From IMG/VR virus record IMGVR_UViG_3300042565_003438, positions 1-45,236 of that record: a stretch of 45,236 nucleotides of DNA; one strand, 5' to 3'. Made by a program: the position numbers and the translations under genes. This DNA is from a virus. This document shows positions 15,879 through 42,824 of this stretch, in pieces; the stretch's first letter is position 1, and each line of letters begins with the position of its first letter. Under the pieces are notes generated by a model that saw only the letters and a program-made list of their open reading frames with translations, was not told where the DNA came from and did no database searches.

Positions 15879-16705
15879 CGCTCGACCGAAAGGTCGAGGT
15901 CGCGGTCGACTTTCTTGACCGCATGCTGAAGACGGCAAGGAACCCGGTCATTCTCTGGTCGGGCGGCAAGGACTCAATGGTGGTCCTGCACATGCTGAAG
16001 TTTCTCATGAAGAGAGAACTTCCAGTCGTTTGCTGGCGAGAGCCCTGGATGCCCGAGAAGCTGCGCTTCATCAACAGGATCATCGACGAGTGGAATCTCG
16101 AGGCCCACGACTATGCCCCGTCTGCCGTCAGTCTCTGTCGAGGGAAGGAGAGCCGGGTCGACATCATGGAATGCTACCAGGTCAGCTCGGCGGCCCAGAA
16201 GCCAGAATACATCATGGTGGCCCGTGGGACGATCGTCCCAGAGGAGGGGCATCCGTTTCTCTGCGCCCTCGAGACGTTTCTTTCTCGTCCGCTTGGGACC
16301 TACAACTTTCCGTGGGACTGCATGGTCATGGGCCACAAGTCGTCGGACGACGACCCGACCGTCGGCCGTGTGCCACTTCAGGTCGACCGACTCCAGCTCG
16401 AGAATGCCGGGACGATCCTCTATCCGATCCGGGAATGGACCGACGATGACGTCTTTGAATACCATGAGAGGCACTCGGTGCCGCACGACGAGACGCGCTA
16501 TGACGTCAAGAACCGGCAGGTTCTCAAGAAGAACTCGACGAATTCCGACTATTTTCACACCTGCACGAAGTGCTGCGACCCGACCTCGGCCTCCTTTGTC
16601 AGGTGTCCCAAGTATGGCATCGACGTGAACAACGTGTCACACCGGGTGCCCTGGGTCGAGCCCAACTTTGCCTACTGCGGACTCAGCCGCGAGGATTCTG
16701 CATAG
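15875..16705 (+). CDS. PAPS reductase-like PP-loop enzyme
   Basis: 276 residues. The PP-loop is explicit at residues 29-34 (SGGKDS, in LWSGGKDSMVVLHML). It is followed by WREPWMPEKL, a conserved-looking RGTIVPEEGHPF region, YPIREWTDDDVFEYH (typical of the PAPS reductase/ATP-sulfurylase small-subunit superfamily) and a C-terminal cysteine cluster (HTCTKCCD, then FVRCPKYG). Superfamily members bind adenine nucleotides and handle sulfur: sulfate reduction, or thiolation as in DndC. The Cys cluster could hold a metal or iron-sulfur centre. It is unusual for its place: it is translationally coupled to a virion gene in the late block. The substrate cannot be decided. Confidence 0.78.
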   Translation: MTLDRKVEVAVDFLDRMLKTARNPVILWSGGKDSMVVLHMLKFLMKRELPVVCWREPWMPEKLRFINRIIDEWNLEAHDYAPSAVSLCRGKESRVDIMECYQVSSAAQKPEYIMVARGTIVPEEGHPFLCALETFLSRPLGTYNFPWDCMVMGHKSSDDDPTVGRVPLQVDRLQLENAGTILYPIREWTDDDVFEYHERHSVPHDETRYDVKNRQVLKKNSTNSDYFHTCTKCCDPTSASFVRCPKYGIDVNNVSHRVPWVEPNFAYCGLSREDSA

Positions 16706-29908: not shown

Positions 29909-30631
29909 TCAGGCGGCGATCTTGGAGGTGAAGTCGATCGAGGCCCCGACCTGCTTGCCGTGCTCGTGGGCGCCGGCGTCATGGCTCGCGCGGCTGCGGC
30001 TGCGACTCGAGCGGAGGTCCATGTTCTGGTCGACCCAGTCCTTGATGCGTTTCTTCTTGTCGGCGATCACGATCGCGAAGCGGTCCTGCTCCTCCTTCTT
30101 GAAGCGGCGCATCGCGGCCTGGCGGCCATGGGTCGACTCGTTGATGAATCCATCAGCGACTCCGCGGAAGAACGAGTTGGCCGTCGTCGTGTTCCACGAC
30201 TTGCCAGTCATCTTGAGGTGGTGGTTGAGGCCGTTCTTCATCGCGTCATAGACGAGCGGCAGCGCCATGCGGGCGGCCTCGATGTCGAGCGACTCCCCGA
30301 CGAAGATGTAGACGTGCCGGTAGCCGCCAGAGCGGCCGACGGTCGAGTCCCACTGCGCCGAGTAGACGACCTTGACGTCGAAGACCTGGTGGATGACGGC
30401 GGGGATCCAGCGATCCTCGTCGCGCTTCTTGCGGCCGGTGTTGACGGACACCTTGTTGATGGTCTCGGCCTCGCGTGCCTCGCCCACCTGCATCTGTTCG
30501 ATGCCGTGGCGCGTCATCAGCTCGCGTGCCTTGCGGAGAGCGACCTCCATCTCGTTGGCCGTGGCCCCGCTCGAGGGATCGGCCATCTTGAAGAGGTTGC
30601 GGATTTTTTCGATGATGTTGGATGTGTTCAT
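29909..30631 (-). CDS. DUF2786 domain protein
   Basis: 240 residues from ATG 30631. The first ~55 residues (IRNLFKMADPSSGATANEME, then KARELMTRHGI) are a clear DUF2786 domain, found in many phage and bacterial proteins of unknown function. The rest includes VIHQVFDVKVVY and YIFVGESLDIEAARM, the usual companion domain of phage DUF2786 proteins, then a helical basic tail with RSSRSRSRASHD. The start lies 10 nt after a predicted -10 box, so the mRNA would be almost leaderless. First gene of a three-gene unit. Confidence 0.78.
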   Translation of the reverse strand: MNTSNIIEKIRNLFKMADPSSGATANEMEVALRKARELMTRHGIEQMQVGEAREAETINKVSVNTGRKKRDEDRWIPAVIHQVFDVKVVYSAQWDSTVGRSGGYRHVYIFVGESLDIEAARMALPLVYDAMKNGLNHHLKMTGKSWNTTTANSFFRGVADGFINESTHGRQAAMRRFKKEEQDRFAIVIADKKKRIKDWVDQNMDLRSSRSRSRASHDAGAHEHGKQVGASIDFTSKIAA

Positions 30632-30641
30632 GACAGGACCT

Positions 30642-30669
30642 AGTCTACCATGGCTGGCAGCCAAGTAAA
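30642..30669 (-). promoter_or_regulatory. Promoter P1 for the DUF2786 unit, with inverted repeat
   Basis: On the minus strand: TTTACT (30669-30664), 16 nt, TAGACT (30647-30642), then 10 nt to ATG. The spacer is TGGCTGCCAGCCA plus 3 nt; TGGCTG and CAGCCA are perfect inverted arms around one central base. The element recurs in three other promoters. Confidence 0.6.
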
Positions 30670-30680
30670 CCCCAAAAAGC

Positions 30681-30720
30681 AAAAAAATGAAAAAAAAATA
30701 GGGGGCCCCGGAGGGCCCCC
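30681..30720 (-). terminator. Intrinsic terminator of DUF932 gene
   Basis: Minus-strand transcript: stem GGGGGCCC / GGGCCCCC (8 bp, loop TCCG) at 30720-30701, then TATTTTTTTTTCATTTTTTT. It lies 20 nt after the DUF932 stop, a textbook rho-independent terminator, and separates this gene from promoter P1. Confidence 0.88.
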
Positions 30721-30740
30721 TTGGCTGAGGTTTTCGTGGA

Positions 30741-31595
30741 TTATTCGGCGGCCAGCATCTCCTTGCGGAACTTCTGGAGGCCGTGGGTCCCGCCGGCGAG
30801 CAGGGCCTCGGCACCGGCCCAGAGGCGGCGGTTGACGAGGGTGTCCATGTGGAAGGACGTGACCCCGCGGCTGCGACGACCCAGGCGAGTCTCGATGCCG
30901 CCCTTGATGACGTTCTCCTGGACGCGGTTGAACACGGTCCAGAGGTCGTCGTGCTTGTCGACGTCGCGGCGGGCGACGAGAACGTCCTTGGCCTCGATGG
31001 GCATGTCGGCATAGCCCTTGTAGCGGGCCTCGATCGCGAACTTGGCATACATGCTCTGCTCGATCTTGTTCAGCCTCCGCTCGCGGAAGGCCTCGACGCG
31101 GCCCTCGGACTCATCGAGCAGCTTGGCCATGTTGGCGATCATCGAGCGGACGGCCTCGGAATCGAGCGACACGTGGGTCGCGACGAAGCTCGAGGCCATG
31201 CCCGAGGCGACGACCATGCCGTTGCTGCAGACCAGGCGGTAGAAACCGGCCATGGCAGACAGACGGCGCGTGCGGTCGTGGCTGTTCTCGAGGATGACGC
31301 GCGGGGCGGACTCCATCTTGCCCGACTGCAGCTTCTCGAGGTGGTTGCGGTGAAACAGCTCCACGCGGTGCTGTCCGGTGATCCCGGCCTCGCGGCGCTG
31401 GCGCGCATTGACCGGCACGAAGCCGTGGTCGCGCAGGACCGGGAGGACCTCGGACGTGCTCACGAACGTGTAGCGCTCGGAGACGTCAGGGGCGGGTTTC
31501 TTCGCGAAGATCGCCGGGGCGAGCTCACGGAGGCGGGTGTCGTTCAGTTCTCCCAGGAGGACCTGGGCCGTAGTTGTGTTTGCAGTATTGCTCAT
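30741..31595 (-). CDS. DUF932 family protein
   Basis: 284 residues from ATG 31595 (MSNTANTTTAQVLLGEL). The central phrase YRLVCSNGMVV is typical of DUF932 (phage/plasmid-related proteins of unknown role). The flanking parts (VSTSEVLPVLRDHGFVPVNA, HRVELFHRNHLEKL and the helical C-terminal half) agree. It is a single-gene unit: a good promoter ends 10 nt before the ATG and an intrinsic terminator follows the stop. This isolated strong expression suggests an abundant early protein. Upstream in-frame extension is rejected because it would run through the promoter. Confidence 0.83.
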   Translation of the reverse strand: MSNTANTTTAQVLLGELNDTRLRELAPAIFAKKPAPDVSERYTFVSTSEVLPVLRDHGFVPVNARQRREAGITGQHRVELFHRNHLEKLQSGKMESAPRVILENSHDRTRRLSAMAGFYRLVCSNGMVVASGMASSFVATHVSLDSEAVRSMIANMAKLLDESEGRVEAFRERRLNKIEQSMYAKFAIEARYKGYADMPIEAKDVLVARRDVDKHDDLWTVFNRVQENVIKGGIETRLGRRSRGVTSFHMDTLVNRRLWAGAEALLAGGTHGLQKFRKEMLAAE

Positions 31596-31605
31596 AACGA
31601 GGGAT

Positions 31606-31634
31606 AATATAGCTGGCTGCCAGGCACGTGTAAA
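31606..31634 (-). promoter_or_regulatory. Promoter P2 for DUF932
   Basis: On the minus strand: TTTACA (31634-31629), 17 nt, TATATT (31611-31606), then 10 nt to ATG 31595. The best sigma70-like match of the set. The spacer contains CTGGC-A-GCCAG, a perfect inverted repeat with one central base. Confidence 0.72.
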
Positions 31635-31681
31635 CCCCAGAATGAAACTTTTTTCAACTTTTTTTCGGGGCCCTCGGAGGG

Positions 31682-33796
31682 CTACTTTTTGGCCCCCTCG
31701 GGGAAGATCGTGTAGGACTTCTTGCCGCCGACTCGGATCGAGACCACCCCGCGGCCCTGGGCCTCGAGCTTGCCGAGCTGGATGCCGAACCACCTCGCCG
31801 AGTTGCGGCCGACGATGTTGCGCAGGCTGTCATAGAGGAAGATGTCCTGCATGAGAGCTGTCGCGGTTCCAGACCACGCCTCATTCTCGCCGTTGCGAGA
31901 TCTCTCGAGCATGAAGGCCGACAGCACCTCGTCGAGCACCGCCGCGTCCGTGCTCTCGCCGGCCGCGAGCCGAAGTTCTGGATGGTGGTATCCCCTGATT
32001 CCGTATCGCGCCTGTTCTGAGATGCATTCCTCTGGCACGTCAAACTCGACCAGCCACGCGGCGAGATAGGGAAGTTCTCGGATGATCGTGTCCTGGAGGA
32101 CGTGCCTCTCTGGAAACATCTTGTCGACGGTGGCGGCCCTGAAGAGCATGATCTTGTCAAGGATCGACGTGTCGAGATCAGGCAGGATGCGGAGCGACTC
32201 GGCGTCGAGGTTTCCGGTGATGATCACGCGGCCAGTCCACTCGACCATGACCGAATCCTGGAACTTGGCATGGTATTCAAAGGTCGTGTTGGCCGTGACC
32301 TTCTTGAGCAGGCTCGAGAACTTCTTGTGGTCTGCCGAGCTGTCGCCGGGCGTCGCGTCGTCGACTGACCACAGGCCGTGATGGAACAGCTCCTTGTTGA
32401 ACGAGGATGCTCCCAGAAGAAACTGGGTCGCGTCCTGGTGACCTCCGACCAGACCAGAGACGATCCTGTTGGACAGCAGGGTCTTGCCCTGCCCGGGCTC
32501 ACCGGCGATGAACAGGGCCTGTCCCTGCTTCGGGGCCCCGTCGAGCGCCGAGCAGTAGAACCTCTTGAGCCACGACAGAAAATAGAGCAGCTGCTCGTCG
32601 TTGTCAAAGAACTTCTCAAGAAATCCACTGAGCCACGGAAAGCGGTCTCCCCAGTCGGCGACCGATTCGGCCGGCCTGAGCGGCATGACCCTGGCCGTGT
32701 TGAGGACTCGCTTGCCCATGAACTCGATCATGCCCGGCGGCAGGTAGACGAACGGGGCCGCTCCCACGACGCGCCTGTGCTGGTCGACCGTGAAGAGCGC
32801 GTGCTCGACTTCTGAGAAGGTCGCGTTCTTTTCTTTCTCGGCGGCCAGCCCCTGCTCGACCTTGAGCCAGCGACCCATCTCCCTCTCGGCACGCGCCTCC
32901 CACTTGCCGTCGGCCGACTGATACCAGTAGTTCTTGCCGTCATACCAGACTCCGTCGATCACCTCGCTGAGCCTGCTCGACGTGAACTGCTCAACGAAGC
33001 GACTTCCGAAGATCTTCGACCACGGCACGAAGCCAGACGAGCCGGTGAAGCACTGCATCCCGGTTGGCCTGACGATCGCGGCAGTCGGGTTGTCTGCCAT
33101 CGGGTCCCAGAACCGCACTCCTCGAGATCCCTCGACAAAGGGTCCGTTCCAGCGACCGGGAAAGCGCTGATGGAGCTCGTTCTCGAGAACGTCGAGCGGG
33201 ATCGAGTCGCCGGTCCACTTGACTGACTCGGATGACTTCAGCATCCAGCCCTCGACGACCGCGGCATCGAGGGGCGGCGCCCCATCGATCTCCATCCAGT
33301 CGCGGCCGACGTCGTAGTAGATGGTCGGGTTGAGAAAGGCCGAGTCGAAGTCGAAGCCGGGCAGGAGGCCACGCAGGTCGAGCGACTTGGCCGCCGCCCT
33401 GAGCGTCTTGATCAGGACAGATCCCGACGCGACAAGAACCGGGCGGTCCAGAATCCACACCAGTCTGGCTCCCCCGGATGGTGTCCTGTGGGCCCAGGTC
33501 GGCGGAGTGGCATCGCACCTGCCCAGCATCGACTCGAGGTCAGAGATGTCAATCTCGGAATCGTAGTCGGCCACCAGGGCGTGGATGGAATGGACCGGAT
33601 TTGCGTCCTTGTGCAGCCGCAGGCTCGGGATGAGCCCCGTGAAGCCGCAATAGAGGCAGTGCTCGGTCGTGTCCTGCGCGAGCCATTCCTTGTAGAGTCG
33701 CTTGGTCTTGAACTTGGGCACCTCGGAAACAAACTCCCAGGGCCTGAGCATCTCCACGTCCTGCGTGACGAGATTCGTGATGCACGGGAACTTCAT
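31682..33796 (-). CDS. Primase-helicase
   Basis: 704 residues. The N-terminal part carries an archaeo-eukaryotic-primase-like acidic motif (VADYDSE, D77/D79/E81) and the later RTPSGGARLVW, as in phage and plasmid primases. The C-terminal part has a superfamily-3-type ATPase: Walker A GEPGQGKT (Lys 438), an acidic motif WSVDDATPG and VIITGNLD as sensor region. A Cys pair (HCLYCGF, 47-50) may bind metal. It would prime and unwind at the fork for the family A polymerase encoded upstream. It overlaps the preceding gene by 4 bp; its end lies 47 nt before the -35 of P2. Confidence 0.8.
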   Translation of the reverse strand: MKFPCITNLVTQDVEMLRPWEFVSEVPKFKTKRLYKEWLAQDTTEHCLYCGFTGLIPSLRLHKDANPVHSIHALVADYDSEIDISDLESMLGRCDATPPTWAHRTPSGGARLVWILDRPVLVASGSVLIKTLRAAAKSLDLRGLLPGFDFDSAFLNPTIYYDVGRDWMEIDGAPPLDAAVVEGWMLKSSESVKWTGDSIPLDVLENELHQRFPGRWNGPFVEGSRGVRFWDPMADNPTAAIVRPTGMQCFTGSSGFVPWSKIFGSRFVEQFTSSRLSEVIDGVWYDGKNYWYQSADGKWEARAEREMGRWLKVEQGLAAEKEKNATFSEVEHALFTVDQHRRVVGAAPFVYLPPGMIEFMGKRVLNTARVMPLRPAESVADWGDRFPWLSGFLEKFFDNDEQLLYFLSWLKRFYCSALDGAPKQGQALFIAGEPGQGKTLLSNRIVSGLVGGHQDATQFLLGASSFNKELFHHGLWSVDDATPGDSSADHKKFSSLLKKVTANTTFEYHAKFQDSVMVEWTGRVIITGNLDAESLRILPDLDTSILDKIMLFRAATVDKMFPERHVLQDTIIRELPYLAAWLVEFDVPEECISEQARYGIRGYHHPELRLAAGESTDAAVLDEVLSAFMLERSRNGENEAWSGTATALMQDIFLYDSLRNIVGRNSARWFGIQLGKLEAQGRGVVSIRVGGKKSYTIFPEGAKK

Positions 33797-34278
33797 ACGC
33801 CGACACAGCCGATGGCGCGGTTGATGACAATGTTGCTGAACTTCTCGAGTTCCTCGGTGGTGCAGCCCATGGCATTGGGATGCCGGGCTTCCACGATGCG
33901 GGCTCCCAGAAACTGGTCATCCCAGAAAAACAGCGGCATCTCCTGTCGAAGCCGGTCAATGCCCGCGGCCGCGCGCCTTCCGAGAACCCCGATGGTCTTC
34001 GGGCGCTGCTCGAGAATGACTCGCAGCATGTGCTCGTGGTCGGGATCTCCGGCGGCCCGGTGGTCGCCGAGCAGGGGCTGAGGATGCGCGTTGTCCCACC
34101 AGATGTCGTGAAACATCGGGCCGAACAGGCCAAGAAGGCGACGTCCGGTCATCGTCGTCGCGAGAAGTTCGCGGCGGAACTGGACGTCGTGCATGTAGGA
34201 CTGCAGAATCGCGGGGTCTGTCTCAGGCGGAAACCATGGGTTCTGCAGGAAGATGACGGTGGTGTGGGCGAGGCTCAT
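33793..34278 (-). CDS. Possible uracil-DNA-glycosylase-like protein
   Basis: 161 residues. The N-terminal FLQNPWFPP and the later pattern RPKTIGVLGRRAAAGI (strand then helix) and ARHPNAMG recall the uracil-DNA glycosylase superfamily, where a motif near the N-terminus and an HP-x-x motif near the C-terminus line the base pocket. The match is suggestive only. It starts 10 nt after a promoter and overlaps the primase-helicase, so the two form one unit. If real, it would repair or screen uracil in phage DNA. Confidence 0.55.
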   Translation of the reverse strand: MSLAHTTVIFLQNPWFPPETDPAILQSYMHDVQFRRELLATTMTGRRLLGLFGPMFHDIWWDNAHPQPLLGDHRAAGDPDHEHMLRVILEQRPKTIGVLGRRAAAGIDRLRQEMPLFFWDDQFLGARIVEARHPNAMGCTTEELEKFSNIVINRAIGCVGV

Positions 34279-34288
34279 GACGTGCTCG

Positions 34289-34317
34289 ATTGTAGGTTGG
34301 CTGGCTGTCGCTGTGAA
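34289..34317 (-). promoter_or_regulatory. Promoter P4 for UDG-like/primase unit
   Basis: On the minus strand: TTCACA (34317-34312, 5/6 to consensus), 17 nt, TACAAT (34294-34289, 5/6), then 10 nt to ATG 34278. The spacer contains ACAGCCAGCCA, shared with P1 and P3. Confidence 0.7.
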
Positions 34318-34326
34318 ATGTCGACT

Positions 34327-35184
34327 TCACCGAGCGAGTTCTTTCCAGTTTTCTGACGACCCCCAGGGCTCCGGAACCTCCGTGATCTCGGGATACTGAC
34401 ACTCATAGGACTCCACGAGCTCGGGATTCTTCCCAGAATCGACGATCTCCCAGATGCAGTTGCGGGACTGCCGCGGGAACATCGGGGCAAAGATCGTGGC
34501 CAGGTAGTTGGTGTCGTAGTAGCCGCGAAGACGCTCGAAGATCTCGCGCTGGGCCGGCGTGAATTCTTCCTTGTAGTCCTTGATCGAGGCGAATGTCCCG
34601 TGGACGGCCTGGATCATCCAGCCCTCGCGCTCGAAGACGGCCCCGAGAGTCTCGTGACGCATCTCGTTGACGTGGTTGTCGGCACAGGTCTTGACGTCCC
34701 AGCAGGGAGTCGAGATGAAGGCGCGCCCGTCCTTTTTCAGCATCTCTCTGAACGAGTCAAGCATGCGGAGCATGTGCTCCGGTTCGACGTGTTCAAGGAC
34801 CTCGAGACACACGATGATGTCGACCTGGTTGGCAAACTCGTCGGTCGCGTCGCAGATGTCGGTCTTCTCGTATGCCTCGAGCGGAAACTTGCCCGAGTGG
34901 AACACCTCGATCGCCTCGTCGAGGATCGGCCCGACGTCGATCCCAATGTAGCGCTTCGGGATGTAGCGAGAGCTGTAGAGCGTCTTTGCCATCGGGAGTT
35001 CACGGCCGCAGCCGACGTCGAGAATGGTCGCCTCGGCATAGGCCTTGCCCTCTGACAGGCGGCGCATGATGTGGCTCCATCTCAGACAGTGGGCGATGTA
35101 GTCGCGATGCAAGAATCCGCGTTTCTCGGCGGTGTCGAGCGACAAGAATGTCGTGTCTACGGTTTTTCCTCTTTTGTTTGCCAT
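34327..35184 (-). CDS. Class I SAM-dependent methyltransferase
   Basis: 285 residues. SAM-binding motif I at 54-60 (ILDVGCG), acidic ribose-binding strand (YIGIDVG), and motif IV-like CLEVLEHVEPEH with STPCWD after it. This is the fold of small-molecule, sugar or nucleotide methyltransferases. There is no DNA-methylase catalytic motif (DPPY or PCQ), so base methylation is not evident. It is 6 nt after the thymidylate-synthase-family gene, in the nucleotide block, so it might act on a modified nucleotide; that is inference. Confidence 0.76.
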   Translation of the reverse strand: MANKRGKTVDTTFLSLDTAEKRGFLHRDYIAHCLRWSHIMRRLSEGKAYAEATILDVGCGRELPMAKTLYSSRYIPKRYIGIDVGPILDEAIEVFHSGKFPLEAYEKTDICDATDEFANQVDIIVCLEVLEHVEPEHMLRMLDSFREMLKKDGRAFISTPCWDVKTCADNHVNEMRHETLGAVFEREGWMIQAVHGTFASIKDYKEEFTPAQREIFERLRGYYDTNYLATIFAPMFPRQSRNCIWEIVDSGKNPELVESYECQYPEITEVPEPWGSSENWKELAR

Positions 35185-35190
35185 GACGTT

Positions 35191-36048
35191 TTATTTTGTG
35201 GGTTGGTTGTTTGTGTTCAGGAGACGATCCTCAAAGGACTTAAAAAATCCATGAGGCTCGTTGAGATTCGGGGTGACGGAATACTCGCCGATGATCGCGG
35301 CAAGGTAGCCGTGGACAAAGCCGCGCTCAATTCGATGACCAGCGACGGCATCAAAGTCATGTCCCTCTGACCAGTCGTGGTTGTGCCAGCCGGAAAGGGT
35401 CTCGAGATCCTTCTCGTAGATGTGATGAGATCCGGCGTTGAGATGCAGGGTGCCGAGCTGGAGGTCCATGCCCTCGTCGCGCAGCGCCTCGAGAATGTGC
35501 CACGACAGCATCGAGAAGTTGAAGACATCATACGGAAACCCGAGCCAGACGTCACTTGAACGCATCGTGTCGATGCAGTGGAGCAGCCCGTCGCGGATCA
35601 GCCACTGGACGGCCACCGTGCAGGGCACGTCCTTCGTGTGCGGCGGATTCTCTCTCCATATCGTGAGAACTGCCTGGCGCGTGTCGCGGTCTCTCTTGAG
35701 CGTGTTCACGACGTATTCGACCTGCCGCGCGATCTTGGGTCCGTAGGCCCCAAAGAATGTCTCCCCGTCGTCGGAAAACTTCTTGATCGCCGAGCAGTAT
35801 CGTCCGATCGATTCGACGTCGCGGCGGCCGGCAAGAATCCACCAGGCCTCGGCCGCCATGAAGCGGTAGCTCAGCCGGCGCTTCTTTGTCAGAACGACCG
35901 GAAACGCCATGTCGACTGCCACCGTGTTGTTGATGATCTCGCGGACCGGCATGCCGCGTGGACTGTATCGACGGCCGTTGAGAGACACGTCTGCGATGAG
36001 CTGAAGCCACGCCTCGGTGGCGGTCTTTGGGATCTTGTCGTTGTTCAT
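35191..36048 (-). CDS. Thymidylate-synthase-family enzyme, probable dCMP hydroxymethylase or methylase
   Basis: 285 residues with the thymidylate synthase fold throughout: FPVVLTKKRRLSYRF, AAEAWWILAG, FGAYGPKI, catalytic Cys 143 in DVPCTVAVQW, and RSSDVWLGFPYDVFNF. In thymidylate synthase the last motif reads PFN, and that Asn binds the uracil ring of dUMP. Here it is Asp 174 (FPYD), as in dCMP hydroxymethylases such as T4 gp42. The enzyme should therefore use dCMP with methylene-tetrahydrofolate, giving hydroxymethyl-dCMP or methyl-dCMP. The next genes upstream are a dNMP kinase and a Nudix hydrolase, which fits a pathway for modified cytosine in phage DNA. Starts in a 4-bp overlap with the kinase. 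Confidence 0.8.
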   Translation of the reverse strand: MNNDKIPKTATEAWLQLIADVSLNGRRYSPRGMPVREIINNTVAVDMAFPVVLTKKRRLSYRFMAAEAWWILAGRRDVESIGRYCSAIKKFSDDGETFFGAYGPKIARQVEYVVNTLKRDRDTRQAVLTIWRENPPHTKDVPCTVAVQWLIRDGLLHCIDTMRSSDVWLGFPYDVFNFSMLSWHILEALRDEGMDLQLGTLHLNAGSHHIYEKDLETLSGWHNHDWSEGHDFDAVAGHRIERGFVHGYLAAIIGEYSVTPNLNEPHGFFKSFEDRLLNTNNQPTK

Positions 36049-36731
36049 TTGATGAGATTCAGTTCGTTGAGAAGAAGCACGCGATCTTTCACGAGGTCCT
36101 CGGCATGCACGTTGAAGTCAGTCGCCTCGAGCATGGCCGAGGCAATGTCCTGGACGTCCTGGACGTGCATGGACATGTCATGAGACGTCTGTCCCATCTG
36201 CTCGTAGTCATAGAGGTGTGCCATCAGGGGACGAGCGTTGCCGAATCCACGTAGTGTCTCGCAGTGGCCGAGATTGGTCGTGGTGTGGTCGGTTCCGTGC
36301 CACCAGTCAAAATAGCAGCAGACCAGGTCGCGGTAGCGATCGTCTGGCTCATACATCTCATGACGTTCCTCGCGGGAGCGACGCAGCGACTCAAACATCC
36401 GTTCGGGACTCGAGAGCAGACAGACGACATAGGTCACTCCGAGACACGACATGACCCGATCGAGAACGGCGGCCTCGGCAGAGATCGGTGACCCGCCACG
36501 GTAGGCGGCGGCATACAGCTGCTCCGAGGGCCAGTGTCTGTCGATCAAGACGGGCTTCTCGATCGACCAGTGGACTGCCAGGGCGAGAGACATCGCCTGA
36601 TGCTCATACATTCTCTTGCGCAGCGGAAGATGCAGGTAGCGGGCCCCGGTCTGGCGCATGTATTCGCGTCCCCACGTCGTCTTGCCGACGGCATCGGGTC
36701 CCTCAAGGACAATGATCGGGTGGCGCTTCAT
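36045..36731 (-). CDS. Thymidylate kinase-like dNMP kinase
   Basis: 228 residues. P-loop EGPDAVGKTT at 10-19, then DRHWPSEQLYAAAY (the DR(F/H)-type motif of thymidylate kinases) and LLSSPERMFESLRRSREER as the LID-like arginine region. It should phosphorylate a deoxynucleoside monophosphate. Its direct coupling to the probable dCMP-modifying enzyme suggests its substrate may be the modified dCMP; this is not shown by the sequence. Overlaps both neighbours by 4 bp. Confidence 0.73.
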   Translation of the reverse strand: MKRHPIIVLEGPDAVGKTTWGREYMRQTGARYLHLPLRKRMYEHQAMSLALAVHWSIEKPVLIDRHWPSEQLYAAAYRGGSPISAEAAVLDRVMSCLGVTYVVCLLSSPERMFESLRRSREERHEMYEPDDRYRDLVCCYFDWWHGTDHTTTNLGHCETLRGFGNARPLMAHLYDYEQMGQTSHDMSMHVQDVQDIASAMLEATDFNVHAEDLVKDRVLLLNELNLIK

Positions 36732-37219
36732 AGGGTCTGGATCAGGCGCTTGGCGACGGTCCTGAGAACTGGCTGAAGAGAGCTCGCGAACATCGCCGGC
36801 TTTCCGTCAAGCATGGGATTGGGCGAGGCGAGATCATCGAGTGACATGAAGACAAGGTAGTCGTGCTTGTCGGGCTCGACGTTGCGGGCGACGAGCTGGA
36901 GATCACGGGCGGCGACAGACCATACACCGATCACCCAGTCCAGACCATCCCCATTGTCATTGCGGTAGATCGTCTGAAACTCGACACGGAAGCAGTTGTC
37001 TGGCTCGATCGCCATCTCCTCGCGGAGCTCACGAAGAAGACCCTCCTCGAACGGTTCGCCATGCTCAAGAAGTCCCGCCGGGGTCGACAGGCAGTTCTTG
37101 GCAGAGCGGACGCGGTCGCCGCGCCACATCATCGCAACCATTCGGGTGATCGGATCATAGGGCACGGCCATGACGGTGAAGTGCGGCAGCGGATCTGGGA
37201 GTGATCTTGGCTCGGTCAT
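36728..37219 (-). CDS. Nudix hydrolase
   Basis: 163 residues. Nudix box from Gly 49: G-x5-E55-x7-R63-E64-L-R-E67-E68, with the usual later Gly replaced by Ala (EEMAI). This motif binds metal and cleaves nucleoside diphosphates linked to another group. In a phage it could remove unmodified or damaged dNTPs, or NAD-like caps. It is coupled by 4-bp overlaps to the kinase and to a 60-aa gene. Confidence 0.82.
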   Translation of the reverse strand: MTEPRSLPDPLPHFTVMAVPYDPITRMVAMMWRGDRVRSAKNCLSTPAGLLEHGEPFEEGLLRELREEMAIEPDNCFRVEFQTIYRNDNGDGLDWVIGVWSVAARDLQLVARNVEPDKHDYLVFMSLDDLASPNPMLDGKPAMFASSLQPVLRTVAKRLIQTL

Positions 37220-37398
37220 GACTGGGCCCTCTTCTCGAGGTAGTGGTCGGCCGCCTCGATCGCGAGATCGATGGCCTTGGTTGGGTTGACGCTGATCTTG
37301 CCCGACAGGATTCCGGCGGCGCAGAACATGACAAGCACGTCGCGCATGTTGACCTCATCGATGTCGGGTGACTTCTTGGTGTTGTGGTTTGGGTTCAT
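37216..37398 (-). CDS. Small protein, 60 aa
   Basis: Start at ATG 37398 (MNPNHNTKKSPDIDEV), overlapping the polymerase stop by 4 bp; its stop overlaps the Nudix start in the same way. Helical, with LVMFCAAGILSG and AIDLAIEAADHYLEKR. No recognised family. The double overlap is the main evidence that it is real. Confidence 0.68.
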   Translation of the reverse strand: MNPNHNTKKSPDIDEVNMRDVLVMFCAAGILSGKISVNPTKAIDLAIEAADHYLEKRAQS

Positions 37399-39164
37399 TT
37401 GAGATAGTGCGGACTCGCGTGGGCCTCCGAGTCGAGAGCGATTCCTGGCATCCATTCACATTCCTGGGCCATGATCTCTCTGACGGTCTCGAGGGCGTCG
37501 TCGACCTGGTCGGCGGGAATCTCGTCGGTCACGACCTCGTCGTGCACGGCGAAGAGAGTCGGGATTCCGGCCTCCTCGATCTTGAGAAGCTTCTCGTAGA
37601 AGCAGTCGCGGGCCGTCGCCTGGATGATGTTTTCCACTCCAAGACTTCCCCACATGCGGTTGACCCGGCCGGTCGCCAGGGTGGCGGTGAGCTGCCCCTT
37701 GTCGCGGCGGACGTCGCGGTAGCGCATCGTGTTCCATGACGGCAGGTCGATCTCGAGGTCCTGGCCAACGGACGTCTCGAACCTGCGCTGGATGCGGTTC
37801 CAGAAATCCACGATGAGTCGCTCCTTGCGGCGGAAGTCGCCGACCTGCAGCTTGGCGTCTCTGAGAGAGATTCGGTGGCCATACTGGTTCCAGCAGTAAT
37901 CGACGAAGCGCTCGGCGCCGCAGCCGTAAGAAAGACCAAGGACACGCATCTTGCACATCGCATAGAGGTTGGGATCCTCCTTCTTGAGGCTGGTGCCCTT
38001 CCAGTTGAGCGTCTGGATCGCATGGACCTGGTAGACTGAGATGCCGCGGTTGATCATCTCGATCTTGCGCTCGTCGTCGACGAGCCAGGCAAGAGTGCGC
38101 GGCTCGATCTGTGCCAGGTCGGCGATCACGATCTGGCCGCCGTGCATCGCGTGGATGGCGCGGCGCATGTCGACTCCCTCGAAAGGATCTCGCTGGAATC
38201 CCTGGACGTTGAAGCCCTGGTCTCCACTGGTGCGCTTGGTGTGGGCTCCGCAGTATTTCTGACTGAAGTCAATCCGGCCGTCTGGGCGGATGCGGTCACG
38301 CATCGTCATGAGCTTGGTCATGAGAAGATTGGCCTTGCGATACCGGCGCATCTCGCGCACCCACGGGATCTCGGGATGCTCGTCTTCCCAGCGCTGGCAG
38401 TCGGTCGAATCCTCGGCGAGCGACTTCGGGGGAGTGATCCCGAGCTTGCGGCACTCCTCGGCGACGGCGATCGGAGAAAGGACGGCGCGCTCCTCGGCCT
38501 TGCCGTTGGCCCAGGGCAGGAGGTTTCTGGCCTCCCAGCAGGCGCGGTCGAGTGTCTGGATCGACCGGTCAAGATACTCGCGGTCGGCGGGAAGTCCACG
38601 CAGACACTGCAGGGTGGTCATGAGGCTGATCTTCTTCTCGGCGTCTGGCCACAGATGCGCGTGGGACTCCCAGATCTTCCAGCACCACTCGGCGTCTCGC
38701 TCGGCATATTCGACAACCTCTCGCCAGTCGGGACTGACTCGCAGCTCGCGGTATGTCTTGTTCTCCATCTTCTTGCGGGCATCCTTTGACACGTCGACGT
38801 TGAACATGGCCAAGCAGGACTTCTTGAGATCTCTGGGATGCCCGAGCCAGCATGACAGGTTCGCGGTGCAGTGCCATTCCGATGGATCGATGTCCTGGAC
38901 CTCTGGATGAAGTTCCTGATAGCGTCGCCAGACGCGGGCATCGAACGCGGCGTTGTGGCTGACCCAGGTTCGGTCATTGATCGACTCCCAGTCAAACTCT
39001 GAGGGATGACCGACAAACGAGCCCTCCTCGGCGTGGACTGCCACGAGATAGATCTCGACCTCGGGATGCCGGAGATACTGGTCGACACCCATGTTGCGCA
39101 GCCCGATCTTCTTCTTGGGGAAAAAGCTGCTCTCGAAGTCGACGGCGACGTGATCTCTGGTCAT
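37395..39164 (-). CDS. DNA polymerase, family A, with 3'-5' exonuclease
   Basis: 589 residues. Exonuclease motifs: D9-x-E11 (VDFESS), HNAAFDAR, and YAERDAEW. Polymerase motif A ADLAQIEPRT (Asp 349), motif B CKMRVLGLSYG (Lys 405) and motif C VHDEV (His 541, Asp 542). The motif B residue matching E. coli Pol I Phe762 is Leu 409. The length fits compact phage PolA enzymes lacking a 5'-3' nuclease. It replicates the phage genome together with the primase-helicase. Overlaps the genes on both sides by 4 bp. Confidence 0.93.
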   Translation of the reverse strand: MTRDHVAVDFESSFFPKKKIGLRNMGVDQYLRHPEVEIYLVAVHAEEGSFVGHPSEFDWESINDRTWVSHNAAFDARVWRRYQELHPEVQDIDPSEWHCTANLSCWLGHPRDLKKSCLAMFNVDVSKDARKKMENKTYRELRVSPDWREVVEYAERDAEWCWKIWESHAHLWPDAEKKISLMTTLQCLRGLPADREYLDRSIQTLDRACWEARNLLPWANGKAEERAVLSPIAVAEECRKLGITPPKSLAEDSTDCQRWEDEHPEIPWVREMRRYRKANLLMTKLMTMRDRIRPDGRIDFSQKYCGAHTKRTSGDQGFNVQGFQRDPFEGVDMRRAIHAMHGGQIVIADLAQIEPRTLAWLVDDERKIEMINRGISVYQVHAIQTLNWKGTSLKKEDPNLYAMCKMRVLGLSYGCGAERFVDYCWNQYGHRISLRDAKLQVGDFRRKERLIVDFWNRIQRRFETSVGQDLEIDLPSWNTMRYRDVRRDKGQLTATLATGRVNRMWGSLGVENIIQATARDCFYEKLLKIEEAGIPTLFAVHDEVVTDEIPADQVDDALETVREIMAQECEWMPGIALDSEAHASPHYLK

Positions 39165-39874
39165 TCGCTCATCTCCTCCTGTGGCGCGAAGCGGCTCTGC
39201 AGGACTGTGTATCCGCCGGCGAGTGCCTCGTCATATCTCTTCTGGGCCCAGTCTGGAAGCTCATCGACGACGGGCCACATGAACCTCTGCAGGGTGGTCT
39301 TGAACTCTGGCTCGCGGTCCTGCTGTTTTTCTTCGATCGAGTGCAGCATCGACGCGACCCTGGCGATCTCGGCAGAGCCGGTCGCGAACATGCGAGCAAG
39401 CATGTCGTCATGCATCGTGCGGATCTCGATGGCGCGCAGATGGAACGGCTCGGCGGCCCGCATGACGATATCCTCATGGAGTCCAATGAGCGACATCCAG
39501 TGTCCGCGGCGCTGAAACTCTTCGGCCATCGACTGCCAGGCCTTGCGGGCCTCGGCCTCGAGAGAAGTCGCGCCGGCGTCGGACGTCTCCTCGACAGAGA
39601 CACAGACGGCCGGATTCTCGGCGGCGGCCCGCCAGATCCATGGCTCAGACCTGGTCGTCGGTCCCCCGATGATGACATTGGTGACGTCGAGACGGGGAAT
39701 CGTCGCGACATCGGTGAGGTTCGCGAGAAACCTGTAGATGACCCCGATCGGCTGGCGGTTCTTCTTGAACTCGCAGTCGGTCACGAGGACACGGTGGACA
39801 TGAAATGGAAGATGCGGAAGAAGCATGAAAGTGGGGCAGACGTTTTGGCCGCGGTCTGCCAGCGCGGGTGTCAT
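39161..39874 (-). CDS. Unknown protein upstream of DNA polymerase
   Basis: 237 residues if started at ATG 39874; a TTG at 39919, just 4 nt after the previous stop, and an ATG at 39826 are alternatives, and none has a good ribosome-binding site. The N-terminal half is beta-rich (HRVLVTDCEF, VTNVIIGGP) and the C-terminal half helical (HDDMLARMFATGSAEIARVA). No family recognised. It overlaps the polymerase gene by 4 bp, so a replication role is possible from context. Confidence 0.65.
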   Translation of the reverse strand: MTPALADRGQNVCPTFMLLPHLPFHVHRVLVTDCEFKKNRQPIGVIYRFLANLTDVATIPRLDVTNVIIGGPTTRSEPWIWRAAAENPAVCVSVEETSDAGATSLEAEARKAWQSMAEEFQRRGHWMSLIGLHEDIVMRAAEPFHLRAIEIRTMHDDMLARMFATGSAEIARVASMLHSIEEKQQDREPEFKTTLQRFMWPVVDELPDWAQKRYDEALAGGYTVLQSRFAPQEEMSE

Positions 39875-39923
39875 GAGCTGCCGGGCGCGCCACTGCAAAG
39901 AGGACGCCCGGTCACCCAAATGT

Positions 39924-40883
39924 TTATCCCAGACTGAGGACCCACTCGGCGAAGCCCGGATCCTTGTGGCGTCCGAGATTCTTGAAGTTGGCCACGGTCA
40001 CGATGTTGCCGGACTTCTGCTTCTCACGGCTGCAGGTGAGTCCGAGCATGAACATGCGGGTATCGGGGATCAGGCTGGTCTGCGACTGAGTCATCAGCCA
40101 GCGCGCCGCCGTGGCCGCACGATAGTTGACGCCGGTGAACTTCATTTCAGCCAGACAGAACTTGCGCTCCGCGTGCTCGAGGCTGAAGATCGGGTCTGGC
40201 TCGATGTATTCGGGCTGCTCGAGCAGGAAGAGGCAGAACAGTCCCGGGTCGGCCGTGGGAGGTTCCTTGCCGTCCCAGTTGGTCGAGAATCCGGCGCTCT
40301 CCGCGTCCTTCGGCGAGTCGAAGATCATCGGGGTGACGCCATCCTTGTATTCCTCGTCGGTCAGGCGCTGGATGAACTTCTTGCGCCCGGTCATGAGGAT
40401 CAGGTTGAGCGGGTCGTAGCCCTTGTCCCACACGAGGACCTCGCCATTGACGACGATCTGTCCGACGGTGAAACCCTTCGACTCGAGATCCGAGCTGTTG
40501 GACTGCACCATGTTGACGCGCGGGCGCATGAGATCGCGCTCGGAGATGGCTCCGTCGATCTGACCCATCGCCATGGGGCGGTAGGACACGACGGCCGTCT
40601 CGGATGCGACATCGTCCTCGTCTGCCTCGATGATGGGCTGGCGAGTCGCCAGTTTCTTCGATGGCGCGGGAGCCGGCTCGACCTCGGCCTCGATGATGTC
40701 CTCATCGGGTTCCGGGGCGAGTGCCTTCTTGGTGATCAGGCGCTTCGCGGGCTGTGCAGCGGGCTGCGGTGTTTCGGACACCTCGGGTGTCTCGACTGGT
40801 GTTTCCTCGGCGACGGGCGCGTCGGATGTCTTCGGAGTCTCGGCCGTCTTGCGACGGAGAGACAGTTTCTGTATCAGTGCCAT
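39924..40883 (-). CDS. Unknown replication-block protein, possible DNA-binding protein
   Basis: 319 residues. The first ~110 are a disordered Pro/Glu/Thr/Lys linker (PVAEETPVETPEVS). The ordered part contains MGQIDGAISERDLMRPRVNMVQSNSSDL and later KGFTVGQIVVNG, LILMTGRKKFIQ, FKNLGRHKDPGFAEW. Proteins of this layout sit beside PolA and a RecB-like nuclease in other phages, where they may replace a single-strand DNA-binding protein. I cannot identify the fold from sequence. It starts 1 nt after the acyl-carrier-like gene stop. Confidence 0.68.
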   Translation of the reverse strand: MALIQKLSLRRKTAETPKTSDAPVAEETPVETPEVSETPQPAAQPAKRLITKKALAPEPDEDIIEAEVEPAPAPSKKLATRQPIIEADEDDVASETAVVSYRPMAMGQIDGAISERDLMRPRVNMVQSNSSDLESKGFTVGQIVVNGEVLVWDKGYDPLNLILMTGRKKFIQRLTDEEYKDGVTPMIFDSPKDAESAGFSTNWDGKEPPTADPGLFCLFLLEQPEYIEPDPIFSLEHAERKFCLAEMKFTGVNYRAATAARWLMTQSQTSLIPDTRMFMLGLTCSREKQKSGNIVTVANFKNLGRHKDPGFAEWVLSLG

Positions 40884-40884
40884 T

Positions 40885-41166
40885 TTATTTGGTTTCCTTG
40901 GTTTGTTGTTCTTGCTGTGTTCGGATCGTCATGATCCTGTCGAGCCAGTCGCCGACTCGGTAGTTGCCGATGCCAATGGCATCAGTGTCCGCGTCGTCGA
41001 GCTGGATCGAAAATTTTTCCTCGAGCATGAGCTGCACCTCGATGAGGTCGAGATCGAGCAGACCGAGGTCGTCGAGCATGTCGGTGTCCTCGGTGATGAC
41101 TCCCAGTTCTGGCAGCATCTCGTGCAGCACCTCGTGAAATTTTTGCATTGCCTCTTCTCTGCTCAT
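40885..41166 (-). CDS. Acyl-carrier-like protein lacking the attachment serine
   Basis: 93 residues. The central region DDLGLLDLDLIEVQLMLEEKF aligns without gaps to the acyl carrier protein signature (DLGxDSLDxVEL...LEExF). The Ser that carries phosphopantetheine is Asp 38 (codon GAT). No other Ser lies near it: the only ones are residues 2 and 52. It keeps the helix II pattern and the acidic surface, so it should fold like ACP but not be acylated. ACP is known to bind many bacterial proteins, so this may be a decoy or scaffold. It overlaps the nuclease gene by 4 bp. Confidence 0.82.
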   Translation of the reverse strand: MSREEAMQKFHEVLHEMLPELGVITEDTDMLDDLGLLDLDLIEVQLMLEEKFSIQLDDADTDAIGIGNYRVGDWLDRIMTIRTQQEQQTKETK

Positions 41167-42326
41167 GATTTTTTCCCCCTGCTGAGTTGTGCATAGCGCA
41201 CTCTGGCGCCGTGCTGGATTAGTCCGGTCTCGTGGAGCCGGTCGACCGCGAGCGACTGCATGCCGCCCTTTTCTCCGGTCTTTGCGTGCTGACCCACGAG
41301 CTGCTTGATCTTCGTGACCGAGACATCGCAGGCCGACAAGAATTCGTCAAACGTGACGCCAAATTCAGACTCCAAGAGCTTCGCCGCGGCGATGGGATCG
41401 ACGATTGAGGTGTCCCCAGACTTCTCGACGATTGTGACTCCCTCGGACAGTCGGCCCGCGTCATGGACTGCCAGCACGAAACGCTTGAACTTCTTGAGAT
41501 AGTCCTCCATGGGCTTGATCCAGCGAAACGCCCTGACGACCTCCTCTGGGTCGGCGGTCTCGGGCGACTCGAGGCTCGTGAGAGGCGCGATCTCGTGGCC
41601 AAACAGATCTGCGTCGTTGGCGAGCTTGACCATGTAGCGCTGCCACGCCGAGCAGCTGGCCTGGCGGGCGCAGAAGCCACAGATGTCTGGATGCGGACGC
41701 AGCATGTCGTTGTCCTGTGTCTCCAGCCACCGGTGGCGGCGACGAACAATTGCTCCGACCTGCGACACGATCACCTCATAGTCCTTCTTGCGGGTGAAAA
41801 GGTGCGTGTCGTCGACCTTCAGGGCCGGCTGAATCAGGCGGACTCGGATCTTCTCGATGGTCGGAAACAGGATGAACAGACCGAGGGCGTAGGCCCGGAA
41901 CTGGATGTTCTCTGACACATGGTCGACCTCCCAGCGGCCAAACTTGAAGTCGATCAGCTCGACAGAGACCGGCTCGTGGTCGGCGTCTGCCTCGAGCACG
42001 ATGACCCGGTCGGCATGCCCCTTGTCGAAGTCACGGAACTTGAGGGGTCGAAAGTCGAGCTCGACCTCCTTCAGAGGCTCATAAGGTGACTGACTCTCGG
42101 CGTCGGCGAGCAGGGCGAGCGTCTGCTCTGCGACCTCGCGGTCCTCGTCTGTCAGCGTGGCAGGAATCTTGCCGGTGTCCATGACCTCATGCAGCGTGGT
42201 TCCGCGAGCGGCTGCCGCAGACGGCGTGTCGTCGGACTCGTAGCCGGGGCAGATCTGCAGCGGCTTCAGCCTTGACGGACTGATGCGCGAGTGGCCTCGT
42301 GACGTGTGATCAACCTGGGAGTTCAT
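41163..42326 (-). CDS. RecB/Cas4-like PD-(D/E)XK nuclease (DUF2800 type)
   Basis: 387 residues. His 46 in GTTLHEVMD, Asp 106 in GHADRVIV and the core ELIDFKFG (Asp 126, Lys 128) form the PD-(D/E)XK active site; QFRAYALGL follows as the usual Q-x-x-x-Y helix. A Cys group (CGFCARQASCSAW) resembles part of the iron-sulfur cluster of Cas4/AddB-like nucleases. Such phage enzymes degrade DNA ends in recombination or host DNA breakdown. Overlaps the deaminase by 17 bp and the acyl-carrier-like gene by 4 bp. Confidence 0.84.
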   Translation of the reverse strand: MNSQVDHTSRGHSRISPSRLKPLQICPGYESDDTPSAAAARGTTLHEVMDTGKIPATLTDEDREVAEQTLALLADAESQSPYEPLKEVELDFRPLKFRDFDKGHADRVIVLEADADHEPVSVELIDFKFGRWEVDHVSENIQFRAYALGLFILFPTIEKIRVRLIQPALKVDDTHLFTRKKDYEVIVSQVGAIVRRRHRWLETQDNDMLRPHPDICGFCARQASCSAWQRYMVKLANDADLFGHEIAPLTSLESPETADPEEVVRAFRWIKPMEDYLKKFKRFVLAVHDAGRLSEGVTIVEKSGDTSIVDPIAAAKLLESEFGVTFDEFLSACDVSVTKIKQLVGQHAKTGEKGGMQSLAVDRLHETGLIQHGARVRYAQLSRGKKS

Positions 42327-42786
42327 GGGAATCGGAGAGGCGAGTGATGTAGCTCTTGATGTGGTTGAGTGGCATGTGGATGAGCTCGACGCCGTATTCG
42401 TCGAGAATCTCCATGCCGGCGACGTCGCGCGGATAGGTCAGACCATAGACGACGCGCTTGACGCCGTGCGCGATGAGATTGAGCGCGCAGGGACCGCACG
42501 GGATCGTCGTGCAGGCGACGGTCCTGACGGCTCCGCGGTGGGTCAGGCTGCAGAGATTGGACTCGGCGTGCACGACAAACTTGCGGCGCTGGTCGTCGTT
42601 CTGCCACCAGTCGTCGGCGACGTCCCATCCAGATGGGAGTCCGTTGTAGGCGGTGGCGATGACGCGGTTCTCATGATCGAGCGCGACGGCTCCGACCTTG
42701 CGACTGGGATCCTCGGAACGGAGGGCAGCGGCACAGGCCAGGACCATCGCATACTCGTCGACAGTTGGGCGAAGATGGATACTCAT
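42310..42786 (-). CDS. Deoxycytidylate deaminase
   Basis: 158 residues from ATG 42786. The zinc site is H73-A-E75 and P-C97-GP-C100, with SRKVGAVALD and AYNGLPSG as in dCMP deaminases. It converts dCMP to dUMP for dTTP synthesis. In this genome it would draw on the same dCMP pool as the probable dCMP-modifying enzyme. It is the first gene after a predicted promoter whose -10 is 10 nt from the ATG; an ATG 5 nt upstream is out of frame and stops at once. Confidence 0.9.
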   Translation of the reverse strand: MSIHLRPTVDEYAMVLACAAALRSEDPSRKVGAVALDHENRVIATAYNGLPSGWDVADDWWQNDDQRRKFVVHAESNLCSLTHRGAVRTVACTTIPCGPCALNLIAHGVKRVVYGLTYPRDVAGMEILDEYGVELIHMPLNHIKSYITRLSDSHELPG

Positions 42787-42796
42787 GACATGCGCG

Positions 42797-42824
42797 ACAT
42801 TATCGTGGCTGGCTGCCAAGTAAA
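42797..42824 (-). promoter_or_regulatory. Promoter P3 for deaminase/nuclease unit
   Basis: On the minus strand: TTTACT (42824-42819), 16 nt, TAATGT (42802-42797), then 10 nt to ATG 42786; GATAAT at 42804-42799 is an alternative -10. The spacer contains TGGCAGCCAGCCA, 12 of 13 identical to P1. Confidence 0.6.

What the first reader, a model, noticed from the sequence alone, without database searches (positions are those of the whole stretch)
30629..42824. Four phage promoters with a shared spacer element and exactly 10 nt from -10 to ATG: predicted leaderless mRNAs
Upstream of DUF2786, DUF932, the UDG-like gene and the dCMP deaminase I see -35/-10 pairs (TTTACT-16-TAGACT; TTTACA-17-TATATT; TTCACA-17-TACAAT; TTTACT-16-TAATGT). 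In all four, 10 nt lie between the -10 hexamer and ATG, so transcription should start 3-4 nt before the start codon. All four spacers contain GCAGCC or GCCAGCC, forming inverted repeats in two (TGGCTG-C-CAGCCA; CTGGC-A-GCCAG). In three, GCCAGCC is exactly 4 nt before the -10. This looks like a coordinated regulon with a repressor or activator bound between -10 and -35, feeding leaderless messages.
Basis: partly seen in the sequence, partly recalled or inferred. Interest (0 to 1): 0.8.

Follow-up and report, generated by a model that had tools for sequence, protein, structure and literature searches.

The report
Phage leaderless promoters sharing an operator
A family of uncultured bacterial viruses starts several of its genes from near-identical promoters that probably begin the messenger RNA only three letters before the start codon and carry a shared palindrome where a regulator could bind, so these genes are probably switched together and translated without the usual ribosome-binding site.

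Summary
In detail: the four promoters lie where stated, each with 10 nt from -10 to ATG, far above chance. The window is a fragment of an uncultured phage (about 66 kb, inferred). Close and distant relatives (about 65% protein identity) carry the same architecture, T[TG]TAC-N17/18-TANNNT-N6/7-GT[CT]-ATG, ahead of DUF2786, DUF932 and dCMP deaminase; close relatives have two more such promoters outside the window. A search for -35/-10 pairs alone in 18 family records found ATG 9-10 nt after the -10 in 36 of 43 cases, five of them probably coincidental; 44 other loci (626 kb) have no full match. In close relatives the gap between -10 and ATG mutates but keeps its length. A conserved Y|GTY-ATG suggests transcription starts at that G, giving a 3-nt leader without Shine-Dalgarno sequence. 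GCCAGCC is part of an imperfect palindrome, CTRGC-W-GYYAG, at variable distances from the -10, which fits an occluding repressor better than an activator. RNA ends, regulator and host remain undetermined.

The parts
30629..30669 (-). Promoter 1 (DUF2786): -35 TTTACT 30669-30664; palindrome TTGGC-T-GCCAG 30664-30654; -10 TAGACT 30647-30642; predicted start G at 30634; ATG 30631-30629
   Evidence: conserved in G001, G002, G004, G005; in G003 the same promoter precedes a 108-aa ORF instead
31593..31634 (-). Promoter 2 (DUF932): -35 TTTACA 31634-31629; palindrome CTGGC-A-GCCAG 31623-31613; -10 TATATT 31611-31606; GTT then ATG 31595-31593
   Evidence: conserved in G001-G005 and, diverged, in G006, G008, G009
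34276..34317 (-). Promoter 3 (UDG-like gene): -35 TTCACA 34317-34312; degenerate palindrome GCGAC-A-GCCAG 34311-34301; -10 TACAAT 34294-34289; GTC then ATG 34278-34276
   Evidence: conserved in G001-G005 and G007; no tblastn hit for the gene in G006
42784..42824 (-). Promoter 4 (dCMP deaminase): -35 TTTACT 42824-42819; palindrome TTGGC-A-GCCAG 42819-42809; -10 TAATGT 42802-42797; GTC then ATG 42786-42784
   Evidence: conserved in G001, G002, G003, G005, G007 and G011; same architecture ahead of the dCMP deaminase of G006, G008, G009
29909..30631 (-). DUF2786 + DUF7168 gene, 240 aa
   Evidence: Pfam E 4e-09 and 3.9e-08
30741..31595 (-). DUF932 gene, 284 aa
   Evidence: Pfam E 9.4e-25
33793..34278 (-).
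42310..42786 (-). dCMP/cytidine deaminase gene, 158 aa
   Evidence: Pfam E 3e-15
30700..30721 (-). Terminator-like hairpin with T run between DUF932 and promoter 1
   Evidence: a consensus scan: 17 found in the region, 8.4 expected

Best explanation
These are four members (5-6 in the near-complete relative G005) of a family-wide set of promoters, probably early or middle, read by host sigma70-type RNA polymerase. Each is T[TG]TAC (or TTCAC/TTCGC) - 17/18 nt - TANNNT - 6/7 nt - G-T-Y-ATG. Transcription most likely starts at the G, so each mRNA begins 5'-GU(C/U)-AUG with a 3-nt leader and no Shine-Dalgarno sequence, and is translated by the leaderless route. The -35/-10 spacer holds an imperfect 11-bp palindrome (CTRGC-W-GYYAG), most simply the operator of a dimeric DNA-binding protein, probably a phage-encoded repressor that occludes RNA polymerase and sets timing or dosage of these genes together. 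Shown: the architecture, its conservation, constant -10-to-ATG length within close ortholog groups, absence of an SD, palindrome enrichment. Inferred: expression class, start site, leaderless translation, the protein, and repression rather than activation.
For: A search using neither distance nor GTY, in 18 of the 29 family records then in hand: 61 T[TG]TAC-N17/18-TANNNT pairs, 43 with an ATG-ORF of 60 codons or more within 60 nt, 36 of these at 9-10 nt; TTGAC, T[TG]AAC and T[AC]TAC control pairs show no peak. A PWM from 13 sites of distant relatives, without spacer, ranks the four window sites 1-4 (29.3, 29.0, 28.8, 22.8; next 17.2). Footprint over the distinct variants of 5 close ortholog groups: variable columns -35 0/25, -10 3/30, gap N7 19/35, GTY 0/15, gap length constant. 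44 other DUF932-bearing loci, 625,889 bases: 0 full matches. Base before GTY is a pyrimidine in 28 of 30 rows, the usual Y/R start. Palindrome in clades B-D: mean best score 8.88 against 6.01 shuffled, 0 of 2000 reach it. Distance from palindrome centre to -10 is 7 or 12 in 20 of 30 rows and 6 to 13 overall, which suits occlusion more than a fixed activator contact.
Against: No RNA data, no identified regulator, host unknown. 8 of 30 rows match the palindrome at 8 of 11 or less (the sixth promoter and G009 carry GCAGAAG forms; L107:4376 in G006 has a different 12-bp palindrome, TTCTACGTAGAA). 9 of 18 further family records have no match even to the short pattern, and in G022 and G027 none lies ahead of dCMP deaminase. 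SD motifs are scarce at other gene starts too (3 of 14 minus-strand starts including these four, 8 of 19 plus-strand starts, starts as I chose them), so lack of SD is not specific. Rows from close relatives are not independent, and the 30 rows were mostly gathered by the pattern itself.
Confidence: 0.62

Rival explanations
1. The palindrome binds an activator (MerR-like or other) that turns the leaderless promoters on.
For: The palindrome lies between -35 and -10 as in MerR promoters (recalled); position 3 of the -35 is T or C, never the consensus G, in the sites listed, which could mean weak promoters needing help.
Against: -35/-10 spacing is a normal 16-17 bp, not the 19-20 bp that MerR activators remodel (recalled); the palindrome shifts 5 bp, half a helical turn, between sites of one genome.
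Confidence: 0.15
2. The spacer repeat is an extended core-promoter element read by an altered RNA polymerase or phage sigma factor, not an operator.
For: TTTAC/TGTAC/TTCAC instead of TTGAC; GCAG or GCTG in the spacer of 25 of 30 rows.
Against: Its distance to the -10 varies from 6 to 13 nt and it is palindromic; no sigma70 region 2 match in 4 records, where the control rang in 10 of 14 genomes.
Confidence: 0.12
3. One promoter cassette was copied within the genome recently, and the likeness reflects common descent rather than present function.
For: Promoters 1 and 4 share TTTACTTGGCWGCCAGCCA.
Against: Hexamers, most of the spacer and GTY are held while the adjacent 7-nt gap diverges (19 of 35 columns); same architecture with different spacers in clades B-D.
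Confidence: 0.04
4. The messages are leadered: transcription starts further upstream and the repeat is an RNA element in the 5' UTR.
For: No RNA ends are known.
Against: A palindrome with a 1-nt centre cannot close as an RNA hairpin without fraying (reasoning); a terminator-like hairpin precedes promoter 1; no SD before the four ATGs; Y/GTY start signature.
Confidence: 0.05

Closest known systems
Leaderless (TA-led) genes of bacteria, Zheng et al. 2011, PMC3160421 (passages seen)
   Same: TANNNT just upstream of the start codon and no SD
   Different: There the signal lies about 12 bp before the start codon; here its first T is 15-16 bp before, predicting a fixed 3-nt GUC/GUU leader. Phage, not host, genes
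R. sphaeroides acuR-acuI-dddL leaderless operon, PMC3017554 (section 7 read; other passages)
   Same: sigma70-like promoter abutting the ATG, overlapped by an inverted-repeat operator of a repressor; leaderless mRNA mapped there
   Different: One operon with a co-inducer-controlled TetR-family repressor and 8-bp arms with a 6-bp spacer; here several phage promoters with 5-bp arms and a 1-bp centre
Leaderless cI/cro of phage PY54, PMC4488713 (passages); lambda cI (cited there)
   Same: Phage gene, leaderless mRNA, operators near the promoter
   Different: Immunity switch of a temperate phage; here nucleotide-metabolism and DUF genes of a phage with no tyrosine integrase found in 4 records
Thermus phage phiYS40 middle/late leaderless transcripts, PMC3594737 (passages of a review)
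   Same: A whole class of phage genes made leaderless
   Different: No operator-like palindrome mentioned in what I saw; different phage and host
Mycobacteriophage L5/L1 operators (PMC1934351, passages) and cluster K start-associated sequences (PMC3203893, passages)
   Same: Short repeated sites tied to phage promoters or start codons
   Different: Asymmetric operators, or a 13-bp sequence 3-7 bp before the start; neither is present here above chance

Membership tests
Leaderless (TA-led) bacterial genes | TANNNT -10 box placed so that transcription starts at or within a few nt of the start codon | tested here: met
   4 of 4 window sites; distance-free search peaks at 9-10 nt, 36 of 43. The 30 rows were mostly gathered by this spacing and do not test it
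Leaderless (TA-led) bacterial genes | No Shine-Dalgarno sequence before the start codon | tested here: met
   0 of the 4 window genes have one; the G004 DUF2786 row carries GGAG in its gap (table)
Leaderless (TA-led) bacterial genes | Mapped primary 5' end at or near AUG | not testable with these tools
   no RNA data
Repressor-controlled phage regulon (L5/P1/lambda type) | Same operator sequence at several phage promoters | tested here: met
   palindrome scores 10, 11, 8 and 10 of 11 at the 4 window sites and 10 at the g167 site of relatives, weaker variants elsewhere
Repressor-controlled phage regulon (L5/P1/lambda type) | Identified DNA-binding repressor | tested here: inconclusive
   no HTH_3 match in 4 records; small basic candidate with no significant family or fold match
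Repressor-controlled phage regulon (L5/P1/lambda type) | Temperate phage with integrase | tested here: not met
   no PF00589 match in 4 records, the control rang in 14 of 14 genomes; serine integrases were not searched and the records may be incomplete
Cluster K start-associated sequence | GGGATAGGAGCCC 3-7 bp before start codons | tested here: not met
   0 matches with up to 2 mismatches in the window
L5 operator/stoperator | GGTGGMTGTCAAG | tested here: not met
   4 matches at 2 mismatches against 2.33 expected; one, GCTGGCTGCCAAG at 42808, overlaps promoter 4
MerR-type activated promoter | Dyad in a 19-20 bp spacer (recalled) | tested here: not met
   hexamer spacing 16-17 bp in the 4 window sites and in the 30 rows

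The most novel reading that the evidence does not exclude
In this phage clade the fixed 5'-GUC-AUG end is itself a signal: a whole gene set is made leaderless with one trinucleotide leader, so that phage messages are picked by a translation route (70S, IF2-favoured) that stays open during takeover, while one sliding operator lets a single phage repressor meter all of them.
Probability: 0.15. Interest if true: 0.75.

Novelty: new variant of a known kind. Interest (0 to 1): 0.5.

Why it matters
Leaderless phage messages have been described, in the papers I saw, for single genes or single phages. A clade in which the same genes keep a -10 box 9-10 nt from ATG, a Y/GTY start and a shared operator across roughly 65% protein identity gives a natural series for testing how RNA polymerase start choice, leaderless translation and operator position are selected together. 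It also yields a short signature for finding gene starts and regulons in uncultured phages.

Tried and rejected
Rejected: chance; the bare heptamer as the element (14 copies, 3 at promoters); the plus-strand match at 15111 (TTTACT..TAGGTT-9-ATG), because the TTTAC there is inside a coding end and the -10 overlaps its stop codon (my reading), with no GTY.

Led nowhere: cultured relatives (near DNA search none; DNA polymerase 446 records, all below 60% identity; terminase one 23% hit; DUF2786 none). Host: terminase scan of genome contigs, 160 stretches and 0 confirmed; primase scan, one 36% relative in an Actinomycetes MAG contig, which has one match to TANNNT-N6/7-GTYATG without a -35. Structure of DUF2786: mean pLDDT 56.9, not used. 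The small basic protein modelled at mean pLDDT 73.4, three main helices, best PDB match E 3.7. The T7-type RNA polymerase search was uninformative because its control was silent. G010, picked up by the motif scan, had 6 hits of the short pattern in 66 kb; none shows the -35 in context, and one carries GCCAGCC, by which it had been picked.

Rows dropped or against: the G004 DUF932 site was left out of the column count because its spacer is 1 nt shorter. L148:5558, L148:754, L149:9475 and L154:19341 match TANNNT-N6/7-GTYATG without the rest. 19 such short matches occur in 44 non-family loci, none with the -35. 9 of 18 further family records gave no hit; eight are under 17 kb, G014 is 29 kb. One search covered 18 of the 29 family records then in hand. 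Two of the 30 rows (D_G019, B_G025b) open a frame of only 9 codons; D_G019 has a near-identical second copy (L163) that I did not count. The motif scan of all viral contigs gave 41 stretches; by contig name 13 lie in 7 family contigs and the other 28 have one match each.
Full report
What was checked. The four promoters were read directly from the sequence and set against gene starts. Each has the hexamers, spacing and 10-nt gap claimed. GCCAGCC-N4-TANNNT-N10-ATG occurs three times, exact, against 0.48 expected with two mismatches allowed. The DUF932 site is a variant in which CTGGCAGCCAGC abuts TATATT. In 300 dinucleotide shuffles of the window, T[TG][TC]AC-N17/18-TANNNT-N9/10-ATG reached at most 1 (mean 0.03) against 5 observed; TANNNT-N6/7-GTYATG at most 2 (mean 0.20) against 4. 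By my reading of the gene coordinates, counting the ORF at 37216-37455 as a gene, four of the five minus-strand gaps longer than 30 nt in 29.9-45.2 kb hold one of these promoters (inference).

Where it comes from. The window is a 45-kb IMG/VR virus record. Close relatives (G001-G005, G007) and a distant one (G006) were found with DUF932 and the motif and mapped to the window. G005 (66.6 kb) spans the window plus about 21.5 kb, so the genome is probably about 66 kb (inference). More distant members came from the primase and terminase. No near DNA match was found among 50,697 phage records, and the host is unknown.

The architecture is a family trait. In the window TANNNT-N6/7-GTYATG hits exactly the four sites; in G005 exactly five, the fifth ahead of a 167-aa ORF outside the window; in G006 five. 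A sixth promoter, ahead of a 96-aa ORF, has TAAATG as -10; in G003 its spacer reads GTGGCAGCCAC where the four other relatives shown have GCAGAAGTTGC. Members at 65-69% terminase or primase identity show the same design ahead of DUF932 (G006, G008, G009), DUF2786 (G006, G009) and dCMP deaminase (G006, G008, G009). The G009 DUF932 site has TATAGC as -10 and so escapes the TANNNT pattern.

Search without the distance. Looking in 18 family records only for T[TG]TAC-N17/18-TANNNT gave 61 pairs. 43 had an ATG opening at least 60 codons within 60 nt, 36 of them at 9 (9) or 10 (27) nt. Five of the nine at 9 nt are orthologs of the gene at 15111, where the match is probably coincidental. The other 31 all carry GTC or GTT before ATG, which was not part of the search. 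Two more, listed at 35 nt, have their first ATG at 9 nt; by my reading it opens a 9-codon frame whose TGA overlaps the ATG of the next ORF (ATGA), as for a short leaderless frame coupled to a gene. Control -35 forms gave TTGAC 1 of 15, T[TG]AAC 3 of 23, T[AC]TAC 3 of 21, T[TG]TCA 10 of 29 without a 9-10 peak, and T[TG]CAC 10 of 32 (TTCAC 10 of 16), seven at 10 nt, which I take to be the UDG promoter and its orthologs. In 44 loci from other DUF932-bearing contigs (625,889 bases) the full pattern occurs 0 times, and about half of their DUF932 genes listed show GGAG before the start, by eye. A weight matrix from 13 sites of distant relatives, ignoring the spacer, ranks the four window sites first to fourth.

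Footprint and start site. Across the distinct variants of five ortholog groups of close relatives, variable columns are 0/25 in the -35, 3/30 in the -10, 12/88 in the spacer, 19/35 in the seven nt after the -10, and 0/15 in GTY. The gap mutates but keeps its length within each group. Over 30 distinct rows it is 10 nt in 24 and 9 in 6; the last three bases are GTC in 26, GTT in 3, ATC in 1; and the base before them is T or C in 28. A pyrimidine followed by a purine 7-8 nt after the -10 is the usual bacterial start (recalled). So I place +1 at G and predict 5'-GUC-AUG. Rows share ancestry and were mostly gathered by the pattern, so these counts are not independent.

The spacer element. Best matches average 9.17 of 11 over 30 rows against 6.09 shuffled; in clades B-D alone 8.88 against 6.01, with 0 of 2000 shuffles reaching it; odd-centred self-complementarity is also raised (3.70 against 2.83 of 5). 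8 of 30 rows score 8 or less. The centre lies 12 nt before the -10 in DUF2786, dCMP and UDG of the window, but 7 nt in DUF932 (and in g167 of the relatives); in G006 DUF2786 is at 7 while dCMP is at 12. A half-turn shift is hard to reconcile with one activator touching RNA polymerase, and easy for a repressor that blocks it.

Regulator. No HTH_3, sigma70 region 2 or tyrosine integrase was found in four records. A small basic protein (about 70-82 aa), encoded between the sixth and fifth promoters in G005, is a candidate by position only: all 15 loci confirmed in a viral scan lie in family contigs, as would be true of any conserved gene of the family. It has no significant Pfam match and its model matches no solved fold.

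Against the reading. 9 of 18 further family records lack even the short pattern, and in G022 and G027 no match lies ahead of dCMP deaminase. In G003 the DUF2786 promoter is followed by a 108-aa ORF, with DUF2786 further down. SD sequences are uncommon at other gene starts too. One G006 site has no copy of this palindrome.

Comparison with print. TANNNT about 10 bp before the start codon is an accepted computational sign of leaderless genes (PMC3160421, passages). Leaderless phage genes are known from lambda and PY54 (PMC4488713, passages) and as a class in phiYS40 (PMC3594737, passages). A leaderless promoter overlapped by a repressor's inverted repeat was shown by 5' RACE and mutation for acuR (PMC3017554, section 7). 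What I did not see in the listings of searches is a phage-clade regulon with a fixed GUC leader and a sliding spacer palindrome. Those searches cover open-licence PMC papers only.

Noticed in passing
window 40885-41166 (-): Looks like an acyl-carrier-protein-like gene in a phage (by eye, recalled); the usual phosphopantetheine serine seems replaced. No tool run on it.
   Followed up: no
L105:6222-6470 (-) in G005 and orthologs: Small basic protein family (core GKFTVxEMASIRGRIGGLxG); the 15 loci confirmed in a viral scan are all of this phage family; three-helix model, no solved fold matches; candidate regulator.
   Followed up: partly
L151:1514 (-) in G019 and L158:1011 (+) in G025: Two promoters of this class open a 9-codon frame from the predicted leaderless ATG whose TGA overlaps the ATG of the next ORF (ATGA; 207 and 101 codons): possible leaderless mini-ORFs coupled to a gene (read by hand).
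   Followed up: partly
window 16755 (+): Plus-strand gene with TACATT/TAGATT 9 nt before ATG and CCTGGCAGAA upstream, conserved in G002 and G003; possible weak further member.
   Followed up: partly
L099 18972-19349 (G003): Promoter of DUF2786 kept, but followed by a 108-aa ORF, with DUF2786 downstream without such a promoter: apparent gene insertion behind a promoter.
   Followed up: no
window 20231-29578 (+): Single ORF of 3115 aa in the plus-strand region; not investigated.
   Followed up: no
window 15875-16705 (+): PAPS-reductase-like gene (phrog_424, E 8.2e-09) on the plus strand.
   Followed up: no
L146:1098-2051 (G009): The N-terminal part of the 167-aa protein is joined to a phrog_1250-like protein (317 aa) in G009, still behind the same promoter type.
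   Followed up: partly
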